This document shows, one piece after another, positions 29,219 through 37,558 of a stretch of 64,000 nucleotides of DNA (position 1 is the first letter of the stretch; the number at the start of each line of letters is the position of its first letter). A program made the position numbers and the translations under genes. Source of the stretch: Candidatus Thorarchaeota archaeon SMTZ1-45 (lineage in GTDB: Archaea; Asgardarchaeota; Thorarchaeia; Thorarchaeales; Thorarchaeaceae); NCBI GenBank assembly GCA_001563335.1, contig LRSL01000109.1, forward strand, positions 1 through 64,000. Direction: 5' to 3'. The notes beneath the pieces were generated by a model. The model ran no database searches. It saw only the letters and a program-made list of their open reading frames with translations, and was not told the origin of the DNA.

Positions 29219-30358
29219 CTAGATACAGCGGTGAATGACCTCTGGTCCGACTTCCTCGAACTCCTTTCGTGAAACCCACATCTTCTGGAAGGTCTTCAGC
29301 GAACCGAGAATGCTTCCACCAATCCAGACAGAGTACTGTCTCTCTGGAGGAGCAATAATTCGGACCTCGATGTTCTCTGGGACCAGCTCGGTGATCTCCT
29401 TGTGGAGTCTCTCCTTGAGTCCTGGGAACATGGTTGAGCCACCTGAGAGTACGATGTTGGCGTATAGGTCACGCCTCAAGTCGACGTCGCAGGCTTTAAT
29501 CGACTCGACAATGTGGTCGTCGAGTGGCATTGTATCTAGACCAATGGCACTTGGGTTGAAGAACAGTTCGGGTGCTTGGAACCTCTCTGCACCAACAGTG
29601 ATCACCTCACCGTCTGGTAGCATGTAAGGCTTGTCAACACCGGCTTTGTCAGCGACGGTCCTCTCCCTTTCGGGATCGAGGGCTACATAACATAGCTTCT
29701 CCTTGATATCTCTGACAATCTCTTTCTCTGCACCACTCACGAAGGAGTAACCCCTCTGACGGAGGAGTCTGCGCAGATACTCGGTGATGTCCCTACCAGC
29801 AAGGTCAATTCTTCGGATGGCGTGGTTGATTGAGAAACCCTCATAGATTGGTACTATGTGGGTGACACCATCGCCAGAGTCAATGACCAGACCAGTAGTT
29901 CGACCGGATGCATACAATGAGAGTACTGCCTGTGTGGCAACGTACACTGCGGGTACCCCGAAGTTATCAAACATGACTGATGCCATGCGCTCTCTGTTTT
30001 CTCTAGGGTTGAATGGTGCCTCTGTGAGGAGCACCGGGTTCTCACTTGGGTCTACTTTCAGGTCGTTATAGAACGTATAGCTCCATATCTTCTCGATAGC
30101 ATCCCAGTCTTCTACGATTCCGTGAGAGATTGGATAGACCAGACGGAGTACACCACGAAGGTTGATAGCCTCTTCACCAATGTAGTAGTCACGTGTATAG
30201 TGGTCCACGTCAGTCATGATTGACTCGTAGCGTGGATAACCAATCAGTGTAGGCCAGACGCTGCGTGGCTGATCTTCGCCGGCGTAACCGTTCTTGCTCA
30301 AACCAGTACCATTGTCGATGACAATTGGTTTTGCGCCAAGAAACTCGTCTTCAGCCAT
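29219..30358 (-). CDS. Actin (Asgard actin, lokiactin type)
   Basis: Filament-forming ATPase close to eukaryotic actin: 379 residues, compared with 375 in conserved actins. Phosphate 1 is [16 protein letters not shown] near residue 14, phosphate 2 is [16 protein letters not shown] near 155, and the adenosine region is [14 protein letters not shown] near 300. The motifs [34 protein letters not shown] and [14 protein letters not shown] are near-eukaryotic, and the C-terminus (GPEVIHRCI) resembles the actin tail GPSIVHRKCF. Codon use and GC look higher than in neighbours by eye, consistent with high expression. It has its own TATA-like box and a strong terminator. A gelsolin partner is encoded at 10.2 kb. 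Confidence 0.97.
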
Positions 30359-30473: not shown

Positions 30474-30633
30474 GGTACGTCCGACAGGTAGGTAAATAAT
30501 TTTAATGTTCATCTATTAGATTCACAATGTATACAATTTATGTATTTTGAGATATATATATCTGGCTATTTATTGCATTATTTTGAGTCAAGAAGCCATT
30601 CTAGTAAAGACTCCAATAATATCTTCGATAAGT

Positions 30634-30643
30634 ATAAAAATAA
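30634..30643 (+). promoter_or_regulatory. TATA-like box of the CARF-like/RNase III-like operon
   Basis: TATAAAAATA lies about 50 nt before the GTG start at 30690. This would put the transcription start near 30668 and leave a leader of about 20 nt with only a weak Shine-Dalgarno sequence. Confidence 0.4.
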
Positions 30644-30689
30644 ACTACATCCAATTACTAGATAATATATCCGCAAATGGTGTGTACTG

Positions 30690-31472
30690 GTGCTTCGAAA
30701 ACCAATAGAAGACATCATCCGTGAAGAGATTAAAACAGTGAGAGCTAGACGAGTCATCCTCGACCATCTTGAAAATGGACTGAAGACAGGCACTGAGCTT
30801 CGTGAAGCAATTAGAAGAGATATGCAATCTCAAGAGGTGAAAAGAAAGGGGAAGACTCTTACAAAGAGAGAGGCAGAGAGAATTGAAGTTACCAGTCCAA
30901 AACTCTACCATAACACTAGCAAGCTTGAAGAGCTTGGAATTATAATTAGTTGGAAACAATCTCAATACCGCCTTTTTGAATTAGACCCACGAGCAATTCA
31001 TCCTGTCCGCAGAGCACTAGGTATTTCAAAACCGTTATTGTATGTTACTTCATTGAGTAGACCTGAAGATCAATGGCCTTTTGTGCAGTGGCTATCCAAT
31101 ACAACGCTTTTCAATCCGAGGAATCTACTAGTCTTTGTTGAAGCTCTGCATTGGAGTCGTGGGGTTTCACGTATAGGCGGCAGATTTGTACCTGATGACG
31201 CATTCCGAACGCTAACGACTGAGTGGATTCAGGTGCCAGATGGCATTACCGGGTCTGATGAAGAGAGAGAGTATGGAAATCTTCAGGAAACCTATGAATT
31301 CATAGAAAATGTAATTCTAAACTACATTCAGAAGTTTAGCATCGTTTTTGACCTCACTTTGGGACCAACCCTCATAACTCTCGCAATGGCTAAACTGGCA
31401 AATGAATACTCAACCACTGCATTCCGTGTTTCAAAATACGATGTGAATGATGCTGAAGTCAGCTATTACTAA
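30690..31472 (+). CDS. Winged-helix protein with CARF-like C-terminal domain
   Basis: Residues 15-105 are a winged helix: VILDHLENGLKTGTELREAI, then a basic insertion, then LYHNTSKLEELGIIISWKQ and a wing ending in RLFELD. From about residue 115 a Rossmann-like domain follows: KPLLYVTSLSRPEDQWPFVQ, NPRNLLVFVEALHWSRG, and a late IVFDLTLGPTLITLAMAKLA. The last resembles the D-x-T-x-G...M..A motif of CARF ligand-binding domains, which sense cyclic oligonucleotides in CRISPR systems. The order is reversed relative to Csa3-type proteins. The start is GTG. It lies 12 nt before an RNase III-like gene. The CARF call is an inference from this pattern. Confidence 0.55.
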   Translation: MLRKPIEDIIREEIKTVRARRVILDHLENGLKTGTELREAIRRDMQSQEVKRKGKTLTKREAERIEVTSPKLYHNTSKLEELGIIISWKQSQYRLFELDPRAIHPVRRALGISKPLLYVTSLSRPEDQWPFVQWLSNTTLFNPRNLLVFVEALHWSRGVSRIGGRFVPDDAFRTLTTEWIQVPDGITGSDEEREYGNLQETYEFIENVILNYIQKFSIVFDLTLGPTLITLAMAKLANEYSTTAFRVSKYDVNDAEVSYY

Positions 31473-31484
31473 GGAAGTGATTCT

Positions 31485-32183
31485 TTGACGCATAGTAATC
31501 CAATTCCTGCACTCTCTTGGAAGCCAATTCAAATTGAGGAGAAAATGAATCTCCTTTTCGATAGAGTTCGGACAACCCAGAGGGTGACTCCTGAAAACAA
31601 TACAAAGCTCCTGACTAAGATAGATAGATGGTTTCAAGATATGGAATACATCCAAAATTGTCTGGAGAAAATAAGAGAGGAGCTTGTTCCAGACTTAGAG
31701 AGAACACTCGGTTTGAATTTTATGAATGATGAACTTGTACAAGTTGCAATGTTTCAACCGAGTACGAAAAATATCTTCATGGAACTGGAAACACAGTATG
31801 GAGGAGATGAGGATAACCCTCTTGGAGAAGAAGGGTTTGCAATGATGACCAATTTGAGCGAGATGGCAAAAGTCATAGCACTAGTAGGTGATGCAGTGAT
31901 ATCATCAGCTGTCATCCAATATCTGTGGAAGCCACATCTTAGTAACGCCGGCCAAATTACTCAGAGAAGGGCGGAAATAGTGAGCAATGAGAGCATGGCC
32001 AAGCTCTGTGACAATTGGAATCTATATAAGTATCGCATTCATTTTGATCCAGACACACCAAGCAAGTCAGAGATTGAACATGACAAGGGAACACTTGTAG
32101 AGGCTATCTATGGTATTATTTACATTGAATATGAATACAAGCGTGTAGTGGGTCTGGTCAAGCATCTAGTCAATATTCAGTGA
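31485..32183 (+). CDS. RNase III-like domain protein
   Basis: Most of the 232-residue protein aligns with an RNase III fold. It shows LERTLGLNFMNDELVQVAMF, then MAKVIALVGDAVISSAVIQYL (signature region, GDAV retained), RAEIVSNESMAKLCDNWNLY, and KGTLVEAIYGIIYIEYEYK. The acidic residues matching E. coli RNase III D45 and E117 are kept, but those matching E38 and D114 are replaced (lysine and threonine by my alignment), so catalysis may be altered. No dsRNA-binding domain follows. RNase III is uncommon in archaea. The start is TTG with GGAAGTGAT upstream. It is coupled to the CARF-like gene and converges with the HD gene, overlapping its end by 14 nt. Confidence 0.6.
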   Translation: MTHSNPIPALSWKPIQIEEKMNLLFDRVRTTQRVTPENNTKLLTKIDRWFQDMEYIQNCLEKIREELVPDLERTLGLNFMNDELVQVAMFQPSTKNIFMELETQYGGDEDNPLGEEGFAMMTNLSEMAKVIALVGDAVISSAVIQYLWKPHLSNAGQITQRRAEIVSNESMAKLCDNWNLYKYRIHFDPDTPSKSEIEHDKGTLVEAIYGIIYIEYEYKRVVGLVKHLVNIQ

Positions 32184-33678
32184 GATCGTACTCGTCTTCT
32201 CGGTGTGTAGGAGCGTCAGTAACAGGGAAGGTATTGTCGAATCGCTTACGCACCTTTTCTGCGATTTTGGAATCAGCATATACACGAACTGATGGAATAG
32301 TGCTTGCTTGTTGTTTCAAGATGTGCATTAGAGGTCGACCTTCCTTAGTTTCGTCAAGACTGACAATATCAAAACCCTTCTCACCACCTACTAACAATGG
32401 GATTTTCCCAAGTGTCTTCTCACCTAGAGGCGGAGAAACTACGTCTATTACAACACTTCCCTCTTCGTCAGAGATTTCATTCTCTGCATCAACTAATTTT
32501 TTGATGTCATGAAGCATATCATGGAACAATTTTTGCGCGGTATTCTCAAATGAGGTTAATGGTCGAGAGAGTACTACTTTGAAGAGTTTGCGATATCTTA
32601 TACGTGCTGCATACTCTCTCACAAAATCAATCTCGGACTCTTCTAGCCATCGGAAAAGGTCCCCATCAGTCATCCGTGTGAAAAGAGCAATACATTCGTT
32701 CTTCGAGAAATCATCTTCTCGCATTCTGAAGTAAGCTGCTTTAGATATCATTGCTTCAGCAAGTTTGACAGCATGATGAAGATAAAGGTCGGAAAACATC
32801 CAGTTCCTACTTAGTATCAGTGCCTCCAGTGAGTGGATTGCTTTCAACATGAAAGCGCGGATGTATTTACCGTTTCGGGTCCTCACAACACGATTGGTTA
32901 ACATAACTCTCTCAGCTGGAAATATTCCGAGTTGAACTCCACTAAAGTGGGCATCTCTGATGAGGTAGTCAGTCTTGTCTATGTCCAGGGGATGATCAAG
33001 AAAATCGGAGAGAAGACCCATGATAGGATTATTTGTGCGTCTCCGAAAAATACTCACAACATCATTTGGTTCGATGTCATTTTGTGTGAGGACATCAGTG
33101 AGACTACTGTTTAGTATAAGATACTCTCCAAGATCAAGGTGATCGAGACCCACCCATGAATTGAGCGCGTACTCGATAGTATGACTAGTAGGAGGGTGCC
33201 CAACGTCGTGTAATAATGCGGCTGCTCTGAATAATTTTTGATGATACTCATCAAGCAGACGTGAGAAGGGTACAAAACATGCGGTATCCAAGTCATCACA
33301 ATAATTTACTACGCGAATTGATTTCTGTGCAAGAAAATTTGTACCTATACAGTGCTCAAACCGAGTATGTGTAGCTCCTGGATAGACAAGGTGAGCAGGT
33401 CCAAGTTGGCGAACATATCTAAGACGAAGCATTTCCCAAGTCGATATGATGTCAAGTTCCCAAGGTTCTAGGAGGACAGCACCATACACGGGATCTTGAA
33501 CAGCTTTCTGTCGTGTGTGTTTCTCGCCCATTCTAATGAAACGGTTGTGCTCTGAAATAGCTTTCTGGATTATCTCCCAGGATTCTCCCTTTTGTCTACG
33601 AGCTGAATCTATCTCAGACTCCCTAATTCCAGTCAAGCGGATGAGCGTAATCATATCGATATTGAGATCATCGGACAT
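32170..33678 (-). CDS. HD-domain phosphohydrolase (SAMHD1/dGTPase-like)
   Basis: Metal-dependent phosphohydrolase. The HD-domain ligands are visible in ATHTRFEHCIG near residue 82, AALLHDVGHPPTSHTIEY near 132 and DKTDYLIRDAHFSGV near 235, the order and spacing of SAMHD1 and archaeal dNTPase-like HD proteins. The N-terminal DPVYGAVLLEPWELDII is the family entry. Length 502. The likely reaction is hydrolysis of deoxynucleoside triphosphates. An HD phosphohydrolase next to a CARF-like/RNase III-like pair may be coincidence, since the genes converge. Confidence 0.85.
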   Translation of the reverse strand: MSDDLNIDMITLIRLTGIRESEIDSARRQKGESWEIIQKAISEHNRFIRMGEKHTRQKAVQDPVYGAVLLEPWELDIISTWEMLRLRYVRQLGPAHLVYPGATHTRFEHCIGTNFLAQKSIRVVNYCDDLDTACFVPFSRLLDEYHQKLFRAAALLHDVGHPPTSHTIEYALNSWVGLDHLDLGEYLILNSSLTDVLTQNDIEPNDVVSIFRRRTNNPIMGLLSDFLDHPLDIDKTDYLIRDAHFSGVQLGIFPAERVMLTNRVVRTRNGKYIRAFMLKAIHSLEALILSRNWMFSDLYLHHAVKLAEAMISKAAYFRMREDDFSKNECIALFTRMTDGDLFRWLEESEIDFVREYAARIRYRKLFKVVLSRPLTSFENTAQKLFHDMLHDIKKLVDAENEISDEEGSVVIDVVSPPLGEKTLGKIPLLVGGEKGFDIVSLDETKEGRPLMHILKQQASTIPSVRVYADSKIAEKVRKRFDNTFPVTDAPTHREDEYDLTEY

Positions 33679-33738: not shown

Positions 33739-34320
33739 CTAACTCAATTCTCTTGACCTCTTCACACGTTCTCGTGCCGCATTGTACTCTAGGGTATTCT
33801 CGGACTCCATTGCCCGGCAGTATTCATTTGGTTGGCAATATCCCCAGCGGCGCATCAAATTACAGGATGTGGATCCTCTCGCTCTGTAAAAGGGAGTATC
33901 AATGAGATTTGTTTTAGTCAGATAGTTTGCTACTGTCTTAATGCTTTTCTTGGCAAAGGCTAGCCGTATACATGGGGGTGCTCTCTCTACTGTCTTCCAT
34001 TTTATCATTTTGAACAGTCGGTACCAGAGAAGACACTTCTTTGCTTCATAAAGTAAATCACATTTTGAACAGGTCTTGCAATGAATTGAGAGTTCGCATA
34101 GTTCATCACGACTCTGTTTTGTGAAACCTGATCCTCTCAGAAGATGGAACTTGATTTGTGTGAACAGTTCAGGAGTAAAAGAACCAAACTCCTCAGCGAA
34201 TTGCCGAAGTTCCTGAGCAACAATTTCTGAACTTGCAGCCCAAAGCGCAACATCAAGCTTAGGATAGTCCATTTGCTCTTTCATAGCAATATTACATTTG
34301 GTAAAGGTGGTCTTAAGCAC
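33739..34320 (-). CDS. Cysteine-rich protein, possibly PriL C-terminal-like Fe-S domain
   Basis: Unrecognised as a whole. The first 100 residues are helical, with a HCKTCSKCDLL cysteine group. The C-terminal part has a PPC motif followed by PFYRARGSTSCNLMRRWGYC and a nearby NEYC. The spacing and context resemble the Fe-S domain of archaeal/eukaryotic primase large subunit (PPC...Y..PSC..M...G.C....C), although the PPC-to-SC interval is shorter than usual. It may bind an Fe-S cluster or zinc and nucleic acid. The start is probably GTG at 34320 or ATG at 34284. Confidence 0.45.
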   Translation of the reverse strand: MLKTTFTKCNIAMKEQMDYPKLDVALWAASSEIVAQELRQFAEEFGSFTPELFTQIKFHLLRGSGFTKQSRDELCELSIHCKTCSKCDLLYEAKKCLLWYRLFKMIKWKTVERAPPCIRLAFAKKSIKTVANYLTKTNLIDTPFYRARGSTSCNLMRRWGYCQPNEYCRAMESENTLEYNAARERVKRSRELS

Positions 34321-35929: not shown

Positions 35930-36538
35930 TTAGTCCAACATTTTCTTGTGAGCGAGTTCATCTCGATATTTGTGGATTCTATACATGGCTGTGAGAATAC
36001 CCATCATGCTGACCACCACAAGACCCCAGAGAAGCTGATCGAGAACAGAAAATACTACTAGGGTGAACAATCTCTCGGAACGACCTCCTAGCCCAATGTC
36101 AAGATTAGAAACACCCAAACTTGATGCACGGGAACGTGTATAGCTCGTAAGTAACCAACCAGAGATTGATATGATTACCCAAAGTTCCACATGTAGGCTG
36201 AGAAACAGCGTACCAGAATACTCTACAGCAATGGATCCTAGAATCATAATTTCTGAAGCCTTATCTGTAACTGAGTCTGTAAAAGCACCAATATCAGATG
36301 CAAGATTCCTCTCACGAGCCACAGCACCGTCGACTCCGTCAAATAGGCCTGATAAGAATACAAGAATTCCAAAAACGATAGAGGACCCTGTTAGATTAAG
36401 AGCAATTGCAGCAAGCAGAGCTAGTAATAGACTAAAGTAGGTTACTGTAAGAGGTCGAGTTCCTGCTCTAGCTAGTGGTCGAGCAATCCATAGTACAACG
36501 CCCTTGAAGATACGTCTGACTCTAAAATTGCTGGGCAA
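35930..36538 (-). CDS. CDP-alcohol phosphatidyltransferase
   Basis: Membrane enzyme that exchanges CMP on a CDP-lipid for an alcohol head group. The signature D..DG..AR........G...D...D is complete (from FDGVDGAVARE to GAFTDSVTD, residues about 65-90). About six hydrophobic helices surround it. It resembles archaetidylinositol-phosphate-synthase-type enzymes. The start TTG follows a GGAGG Shine-Dalgarno sequence that lies inside the end of the upstream nucleotidyltransferase gene, so the two are translationally coupled. Coupling to a nucleotidyltransferase suggests a shared head-group pathway (for example CDP- or inositol-phosphate-linked), which is an inference. Confidence 0.88.
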   Translation of the reverse strand: MPSNFRVRRIFKGVVLWIARPLARAGTRPLTVTYFSLLLALLAAIALNLTGSSIVFGILVFLSGLFDGVDGAVARERNLASDIGAFTDSVTDKASEIMILGSIAVEYSGTLFLSLHVELWVIISISGWLLTSYTRSRASSLGVSNLDIGLGGRSERLFTLVVFSVLDQLLWGLVVVSMMGILTAMYRIHKYRDELAHKKMLD

Positions 36539-36541
36539 GTA

Positions 36542-37558
36542 TCATACCTCCACATTATACTCAATGGAGTCATAGATGACGCTCTTATGCACTCGGCTCC
36601 GAGGTGAAAGCTTCGACTCACCAAATAATATTGTATCAGTGAGTTCACAACCAATTGACATTGTAGAGTTTGAGCCAATTGTCACATTGGGTCCAATCTT
36701 GCAGTAATCGCCAATCTCACAGTTTGGAAATATCAAAACTGGACCTTGTAGATAGATTCCTTTACCAAGTGTAATTCTCGACTTTAACGATAAGGTATCT
36801 CCAATCTCAATACTATCATCATAAGGAATCAAAACGGATTCCGAGTTTCCGATGGCTCCGCGTCTGAGTATATGGTGATTCGTATCTAGGAGGTCAGACA
36901 ATGTGTCAATATCAAACCAGGGTTGAGTTACATCAAAGTACTGAACATGATCGCCATTCTTGAGTAATTCCTCCAACAGGTGAGTAACTCGTTCATTACC
37001 GCTGTCAATTATAGATTTACAAAGACCTCTAACACGAGTATGACCAATAAGCATCATTGCACTTCTCGCAACATTCTTGGGATTATCACCAGCTTCACCA
37101 ATTCCTAATACTAGTCCATCATCACCAAGCTCAACGAGAGTCCCAAATTTCGCATTGGAGCTTACTGCGAGCATTATACTTTCAGGAGTGCCAAACTTAG
37201 ATTTGTGCTCCAGTAATCCTATAACACTAGATGGTTCTATCATCGCATCTACGGGAGAAAGGAGAAAATCTCCATCAAAGGTTTCGATTGCTGAGAGCAA
37301 GGTCTGAAGAGGGCCTGTTTCGTAATTGTGTACATGAACGACATTAACATTGAGCTTCGAGTCTTTTACAAAATCCTCAATCATGGCTCCTTTCCATCCA
37401 ACAGATATCACAATATCATCAATTCCAGAACTAGTATATCGCTCAATCGCCCACTCTAAGAGCGTCTTTCCTGCAACTTCGACGAGCGCTTTGGGTATTT
37501 TTTTGGTCAAAGGTTTCATTCGTTCGCCTTTGCCAGCTGCAAGAATGACTCCGTGAAT
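36542..37558 (-). CDS. Sugar/inositol-phosphate nucleotidyltransferase, apparent ATT start
   Basis: NTP-transferase domain (residues 1-240) with the essential glycine-rich LAAGKGERMKPLT loop, then LSPVDAMIEPSS, followed by left-handed beta-helix repeats (NCEIGDYCKIGPNVTIG) to residue 338. Starting at the first ATG (37519) would remove the GAGKG-type loop. The frame is closed by TGA at 37571-37573, and the only codons between are non-standard. A GGAGG at 37566-37570 lies 7 nt before ATT at 37558, giving an N-terminus I/M-H-G-V-I-L-A-A-G-K-G. It most likely makes an activated head group for the neighbouring phosphatidyltransferase. Confidence 0.75.
   Translation of the reverse strand: MHGVILAAGKGERMKPLTKKIPKALVEVAGKTLLEWAIERYTSSGIDDIVISVGWKGAMIEDFVKDSKLNVNVVHVHNYETGPLQTLLSAIETFDGDFLLSPVDAMIEPSSVIGLLEHKSKFGTPESIMLAVSSNAKFGTLVELGDDGLVLGIGEAGDNPKNVARSAMMLIGHTRVRGLCKSIIDSGNERVTHLLEELLKNGDHVQYFDVTQPWFDIDTLSDLLDTNHHILRRGAIGNSESVLIPYDDSIEIGDTLSLKSRITLGKGIYLQGPVLIFPNCEIGDYCKIGPNVTIGSNSTMSIGCELTDTILFGESKLSPRSRVHKSVIYDSIEYNVEV

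What the first reader, a model, noticed from the sequence alone, without database searches (positions are those of the whole stretch)
30690..32183. Candidate new two-gene system: winged-helix/CARF-like sensor with an RNase III-like effector
The C-terminal domain of the first gene has a Rossmann pattern and DLTLGPTLITLAMA like CARF motifs; the second gene has RNase III signature blocks with only part of the catalytic acids. They are 12 nt apart. CARF sensors signal foreign nucleic acid, and RNase III is rare in archaea, so a non-CRISPR RNA-defence or RNA-control pair is plausible. This is my inference.
Basis: inference. Interest (0 to 1): 0.65.

Follow-up and report, generated by a model that had tools for sequence, protein, structure and literature searches.

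The report
CARF regulator–RNase III pair beside actin
In Thorarchaeota (Asgard archaea), a DNA-binding regulator with a messenger-sensing (CARF) domain is joined to the lineage's only RNase III-type RNA-cutting enzyme and sits back to back with the actin gene; it looks like a core regulatory unit rather than the defence cassette first proposed, but its function is untested.

Summary
Window 30690-31472 encodes a winged helix plus a CARF domain (PADLOC CARF_m5, E 3.4e-20; AlphaFold2 pLDDT 88.6; Foldseek best matches Cam1, Csm6, Card1). Window 31485-32183 encodes an RNase III domain (PF00636, E 2.1e-13; pLDDT 92.6), 12 nt downstream. The genes are adjacent in all 42 Thorarchaeota genomes where both can be seen.

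The defence/cyclic-oligoadenylate reading is not supported. Gene 1 is divergent from lokiactin in nine Asgard families, mostly without gene 2. Only 9 of 47 Thorarchaeota genomes match a Cas10-palm model. The motif-2 Arg/Lys that cA4 binding needs in Csa3 is present in 18/18 other Asgard CARF_m5 proteins but 1/24 Thorarchaeota proteins (Thr227 here).

Gene 2 is probably active: it keeps Asp136 and Glu206, and its two 'missing' acids are also missing in bacterial Mini-III. It lacks a dsRBD and is the only RNase III match in nearly every Thorarchaeota genome.

Best reading: an auto-regulating, ligand-responsive wHTH-CARF repressor, possibly also acting on lokiactin, co-expressed with a Mini-III-like dsRNA nuclease. 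Both parts belong to known superfamilies; the fixed pairing, actin linkage and loss of the messenger-binding residue appear unreported.

The parts
30690..31472 (+). Gene 1: N-terminal winged helix (about residues 6-98) and C-terminal CARF domain (about 116-247); CARF_m5 family
   Evidence: PADLOC CARF_m5 E 3.4e-20, 39/39 homologues; AlphaFold2 pLDDT 88.6; Foldseek PDB best matches are CARF proteins and ArsR-type winged helices
31485..32183 (+). Gene 2: RNase III-domain protein with Mini-III-like active site, N-terminal two-helix extension, no dsRBD
   Evidence: PF00636 E 2.1e-13; AlphaFold2 pLDDT 92.6; Foldseek T. maritima and E. coli RNase III; Asp136 and Glu206 invariant
31350..31370 (+). 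Codons of the CARF motif-2 loop D221-L-T-L-G225-P-T227; the Arg/Lys position is Thr here
   Evidence: Residue 227 is R/K in 18/18 non-Thorarchaeota and 1/24 Thorarchaeota homologues; role of the Arg from PMC8844856
30654..30674 (+). Conserved 21-bp block ATTACTAGATAATATATCCGC just upstream of gene 1; candidate start region/operator
   Evidence: More conserved in the genus than the start of gene 1; no second good match in the genome; sits 30 nt downstream of the TATA-like element in 13/13 genomes
30624..30639 (+). TATA/BRE-like element TTCGATAAGTATAAAA, candidate promoter of gene 1
   Evidence: Present upstream of gene 1 in 13/13 genus genomes, with a second copy further upstream in most
29219..30358 (-). 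Divergent neighbour: lokiactin (eukaryote-like actin), conserved partner of gene 1 across Asgard families
   Evidence: Best PDB matches HC1 actin and eukaryotic actins, E down to 5.3e-187; adjacency

Best explanation
A two-gene core operon of Thorarchaeota. Shown by computation: gene 1 is a wHTH-CARF protein, gene 2 is an RNase III-fold protein, they are always adjacent, and they lie divergently from lokiactin. Inferred mechanism: gene 1 works as a dimer whose CARF domains form a ligand pocket and whose winged helices bind the gene 1-lokiactin intergenic region. The conserved 21-bp block at 30654-30674, placed where transcription should start, would be its main operator, so that gene 1 represses its own operon, and perhaps lokiactin, until a ligand binds. 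The ligand is probably not a cyclic oligoadenylate, because the phosphate-binding Arg/Lys is gone. Gene 2 is co-expressed, forms the usual RNase III dimer and cuts double-stranded or structured RNA with a two-acid (Asp136, Glu206) metal site like that of Mini-III. The net effect would be ligand-controlled expression of the lineage's main RNase III activity.
For: Folds. Adjacency in 42/42 informative genomes, short gaps or 4-nt overlaps. Divergent placement from lokiactin in nine Asgard families, the usual layout of a local regulator. Conserved promoter/start block unique in the genome. Mini-III pattern of active-site residues. Missing motif-2 Arg and rarity of Cas10.
Against: No DNA-binding, ligand or RNase data exist. 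The conserved block could simply be a core promoter or 5' leader. Conserved synteny can persist without shared function. The block is found only in the window's genus; other Thorarchaeota genera have different sequences there. CARF-wHTH proteins such as Csa3 can be activators rather than repressors.
Confidence: 0.45

Rival explanations
1. A non-CRISPR defence or stress module: gene 1 senses a nucleotide messenger made on infection and controls or directly activates gene 2, which degrades RNA.
For: CARF domains are classic immune sensors and PADLOC files this family among defence proteins. A SAMHD1/dGTPase-like HD gene lies next door. Cas10-like genes exist in 9 of 47 Thorarchaeota genomes.
Against: The locus is fixed and syntenic across a whole family, unlike a patchy mobile defence island. 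The Arg needed for cA4 binding is absent in 23/24 Thorarchaeota proteins. Cas10 is absent from most genomes. Homologues without any RNase keep the same place beside actin. No viral copies.
Confidence: 0.15
2. Gene 2 is an unrelated housekeeping RNase (for example in rRNA maturation, like Mini-III) that happened to settle downstream of an ancestral actin-linked regulator; the two share a promoter but no function.
For: Gene 2 is the only RNase III match in nearly every Thorarchaeota genome. Mini-III is a 23S rRNA maturation enzyme (established knowledge). Loki-type relatives of gene 2 stand alone in varied contexts. Gene 1 exists without gene 2 elsewhere.
Against: No loss or separation of the pair was seen in 42 genomes of 13 genera, and in several genera the stop and start codons overlap by 4 nt, which argues for coupled expression.
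Confidence: 0.27
3. Gene 2 is a catalytically dead RNase III fold used as an RNA-binding or scaffold subunit.
For: Two of the four canonical acids are replaced; mitoribosomal RNase III-fold proteins appear among the fold matches.
Against: Asp136 and Glu206, the pair kept by Mini-III, are invariant in 31 homologues; the replacements match those of Mini-III, described as a dsRNA-cleaving enzyme (PMC4357697).
Confidence: 0.13

Closest known systems
CARF_m5 family (PADLOC-DB PDLC01987, a minor CARF clade)
   Same: Gene 1 and all 39 homologues match it over most of their length
   Different: The Thorarchaeota branch has lost the motif-2 Arg/Lys, carries insertions in the wHTH and CARF parts, and is paired with an RNase III. 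What the original paper says about m5 could not be read
Csa3 (CARF-wHTH transcription factor of CRISPR loci)
   Same: CARF plus winged helix in one protein; Foldseek finds Csa3 2wte and 6w11
   Different: Domain order reversed (wHTH first here), no Csa3-type cA4-binding motifs, not in a CRISPR locus (PMC8844856)
Bacterial Mini-III (MrnC)
   Same: No dsRBD; same residues at the E41 (Ala) and D114 (Thr) positions; same retained Asp and Glu
   Different: Gene 2 has the canonical RNase III first helix and a further N-terminal two-helix extension; Mini-III sits on a long branch and its kinship is unresolved
Canonical RNase III (Rnc), including the dsRBD-bearing Asgard enzymes
   Same: Same catalytic fold; Foldseek best matches T. 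maritima and E. coli RNase III
   Different: Those keep ERLEFLGD and, in Asgards, mostly a C-terminal dsRBD; a branch with 100/98 support separates them from gene 2

Membership tests
CARF superfamily (CARF_m5 clade) | Profile match to the family | tested here: met
   E 3.4e-20 for the window protein; 39/39 homologues; 0 of 14 control genomes
CARF superfamily (CARF_m5 clade) | Rossmann fold closest to CARF structures | tested here: met
   25 PDB matches at E <= 0.001, the listed ones being CARF proteins
CARF superfamily (CARF_m5 clade) | Motif-2 Arg/Lys for cyclic oligoadenylate binding | tested here: not met
   Thr227 here; R/K in 1/24 Thorarchaeota against 18/18 other homologues. This lowers the claim of cOA sensing, not fold membership
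CARF superfamily (CARF_m5 clade) | Binds a cyclic oligonucleotide | not testable with these tools
   Needs a binding experiment
Type III CRISPR ancillary CARF effector | Co-occurrence with Cas10 and linkage to a CRISPR locus | tested here: not met
   Cas10-palm match in 9/47 family genomes and none in this one; no cas genes beside the pair
RNase III superfamily | RNase III domain by profile and fold | tested here: met
Canonical (class 1) RNase III | ExxExxGD signature, four catalytic acids and C-terminal dsRBD | tested here: not met
   AxxGD; E41 and D114 equivalents replaced; protein ends after the nuclease domain
Mini-III | RNase III domain without dsRBD, retained Asp/Glu pair, replaced E41 and D114 | tested here: met
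   Alignment with PDB-verified B. subtilis Mini-III
Mini-III | Groups with bacterial Mini-III in a tree | tested here: inconclusive
   Mini-III branch very long; rooting unknown; only three references
Dedicated anti-virus defence system | Patchy, mobile distribution and clustering with defence genes | tested here: not met
   Fixed, syntenic core locus in the family
Dedicated anti-virus defence system | Protects a host against virus or plasmid | not testable with these tools
   Needs experiment

The most novel reading that the evidence does not exclude
A CARF regulator ancestrally tied to the actin gene of Asgard archaea was repurposed in Thorarchaeota: it lost cyclic-oligoadenylate binding, took a new cellular ligand, and gained a Mini-III-like RNase as a partner. 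This would be a messenger-controlled transcription-plus-RNA-decay switch on the actin locus, and a non-immune use of CARF.
Probability: 0.17. Interest if true: 0.8.

Novelty: new variant of a known kind. Interest (0 to 1): 0.5.

Why it matters
CARF domains are known almost only as immune sensors of cyclic oligoadenylates. A CARF regulator that is core, unlinked to CRISPR, has lost the phosphate-binding Arg and lies beside lokiactin suggests a housekeeping role, and gives a concrete candidate regulator for Asgard actin, for which I found none described. The survey also shows RNase III in 151 of 228 Asgard genomes, against a recent statement that all archaea lack it (PMC12669027), and separates two Asgard classes (canonical, dsRBD-bearing, and Mini-III-like), which bears on the origin of eukaryotic RNase III enzymes.

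Tried and rejected
Searches of gene 1 alone against Pfam, NCBIfam and PDB sequences gave nothing usable; only PADLOC and structure settled it. I considered gene 2 inactive because of its missing acids and dropped that as the main view after the Mini-III comparison. Viral contigs hold neither gene. Neighbours of the stand-alone Loki-type relatives of gene 2 (thiolase, MFS transporter, formate-THF ligase, AAA ATPase) give no common functional hint. The 21-bp block was tested as a regulon marker: it has no second good match in the genome, so there is no evidence for a regulon. The Makarova 2020 CARF classification paper is not held, so what it says about the m5 clade could not be read. Literature searches for the pair found nothing, which is weak evidence because many journals are missing.

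Full report
What is there. The window is from a Thorarchaeota genome: the genomes of its family match records titled Candidatus Thorarchaeota. Gene 1 (30690-31472, GTG start, 260 aa) and gene 2 (31485-32183, TTG start, 232 aa) are real, co-directional and 12 nt apart.

Gene 1. By itself it has no usable Pfam, NCBIfam or PDB sequence match. All 39 homologues tested match PADLOC's CARF_m5 model, the window protein at E 3.4e-20 and the best at 2.4e-80; weaker N-terminal matches are to PadR, HTH_20 and similar winged helices. AlphaFold2 on an alignment of 46 sequences gives pLDDT 88.6, with a winged helix followed by a Rossmann domain. The best solved structures are CARF proteins (Cam1, Csm6, Card1, Cdn1; E 8e-5 to 1e-3, probability 1.00), then ArsR/PadR-type winged helices.

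Gene 2. Pfam RNase III at E 2.1e-13, profile-to-PDB Drosha at E 4.6e-13, AlphaFold2 pLDDT 92.6, Foldseek best matches bacterial RNase III. There is no dsRBD, and residues 1-75 hold two extra helices. Asp136 and Glu206 are invariant; the E41 and D114 equivalents are Ala132 and Thr203. Those two replacements are the ones found in B. subtilis Mini-III. I therefore infer that gene 2 is active. A tree separates these long forms from the other Asgard RNase III proteins and the E. coli enzyme with 100/98 support; the Thorarchaeota proteins form one group (100/99); the placement of Mini-III is unsure.

Distribution. In the 47 genomes of the window's family, gene 1 was found in 43 and gene 2 in 43 (two of them, and one seen only in the fetched DNA, as pieces cut by a contig end). 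In 39 genomes both are present on one contig as neighbours, and in three more a contig end cuts gene 2 right after gene 1; no counter-example was seen. Most gaps run from 13 nt to a 4-nt stop-start overlap; a few larger values depend on which start codon is chosen. Thorarchaeota genomes with a PF00636 match carry one, except one genome with two, the second near a contig end. In other Asgards gene 1 occurs without gene 2, and long gene 2 relatives in Loki-type families stand alone.

Setting. Gene 1 is divergent from the lokiactin gene throughout Thorarchaeota and in families f3, f5, f6, f9, f11, f12, f16 and f29; family f4 lacks the actin there but keeps another syntenic gene. The actin protein is 92-100% identical across Thorarchaeota, and its best PDB matches are 'HC1 actin' and eukaryotic actins. 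Beyond gene 2 lie an HD (SAMHD1/dGTPase-like) gene, an FG-GAP protein, an archaetidylinositol-phosphate-synthase-like gene and a GlmU-like gene. This is stable core synteny, not a defence island.

Control region. Within the genus the intergenic region is mostly diverged except for promoter-like blocks. A 21-mer at 30654-30674 is more conserved than the start of gene 1, and its only other match in the genome has three mismatches. A TTCGAWAAGTAT element lies exactly 30 nt upstream of it in all 13 genomes compared, with a second copy further upstream in most; 21 copies were seen against 0.005 expected in shuffled sequence, though the sequences are related, so this is not 21 independent events. 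I read this as promoter plus transcription-start block, a natural site for an autorepressor; that is inference. Other Thorarchaeota genera lack this sequence.

The ligand. In Csa3 the motif-2 Arg98 (L-x-x-G-x-R) binds the cA4 phosphates and R98A abolishes binding (PMC8844856). The same spacing is seen here (L222-T-L-G225-P-T227). The residue is Arg or Lys in 18 of 18 non-Thorarchaeota homologues, but Pro, Ser, Thr or Ala in 23 of 24 Thorarchaeota proteins. Cas10-palm matches are found in 9 of 47 Thorarchaeota genomes, none in this one, with a model that also rings in E. coli; these genomes are incomplete, so absence in any one is soft. So sensing of cyclic oligoadenylate by this protein is unlikely, whereas its non-Thorarchaeota relatives may still bind it. 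The equivalence of the motif rests on sequence spacing and fold, not on a superposition that I could inspect.

Verdict. The most likely function is a ligand-responsive local regulator co-expressed with a Mini-III-like RNase. The pairing, the actin linkage and the lineage-specific loss of the messenger-binding residue seem undescribed, as far as the searchable literature shows.

Noticed in passing
window 32170-33678 (-): HD-domain protein of SAMHD1/dGTPase type (PF01966 plus PF19276), convergent with gene 2 and conserved next to it in all Thorarchaeota loci examined; weak match to PADLOC dGTPase.
   Followed up: partly
window 33739-34320 (-): 193-aa protein without any Pfam, NCBIfam or PADLOC match, conserved in the same place across Thorarchaeota.
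   Followed up: no
L065, L066, L071, L072, L076, L077 and others: RNase III (PF00636) is present in 151 of 228 Asgard genomes, often as canonical dsRBD-bearing enzymes, contrary to the statement that all archaea lack RNase III (PMC12669027). An Asgard rnc beside Argonaute was already reported (PMC11217426).
   Followed up: partly
G221:C116, G146:C79, G095:C47 and C11: Extra CARF_m5 copies, some as close pairs on one contig or two matches within one long frame; perhaps accessory or immune paralogues of the actin-linked gene.
   Followed up: no
L101 (G005) gene 1, position equivalent to 227: The window's close relative G005 has Arg at the otherwise lost motif-2 position (DLTLGPR), the only one of 24 Thorarchaeota proteins to do so.
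   Followed up: no
window 35930-37519 (-): Archaetidylinositol-phosphate-synthase-like and GlmU-like genes stay linked to the CARF-actin locus across most Asgard families.
   Followed up: partly
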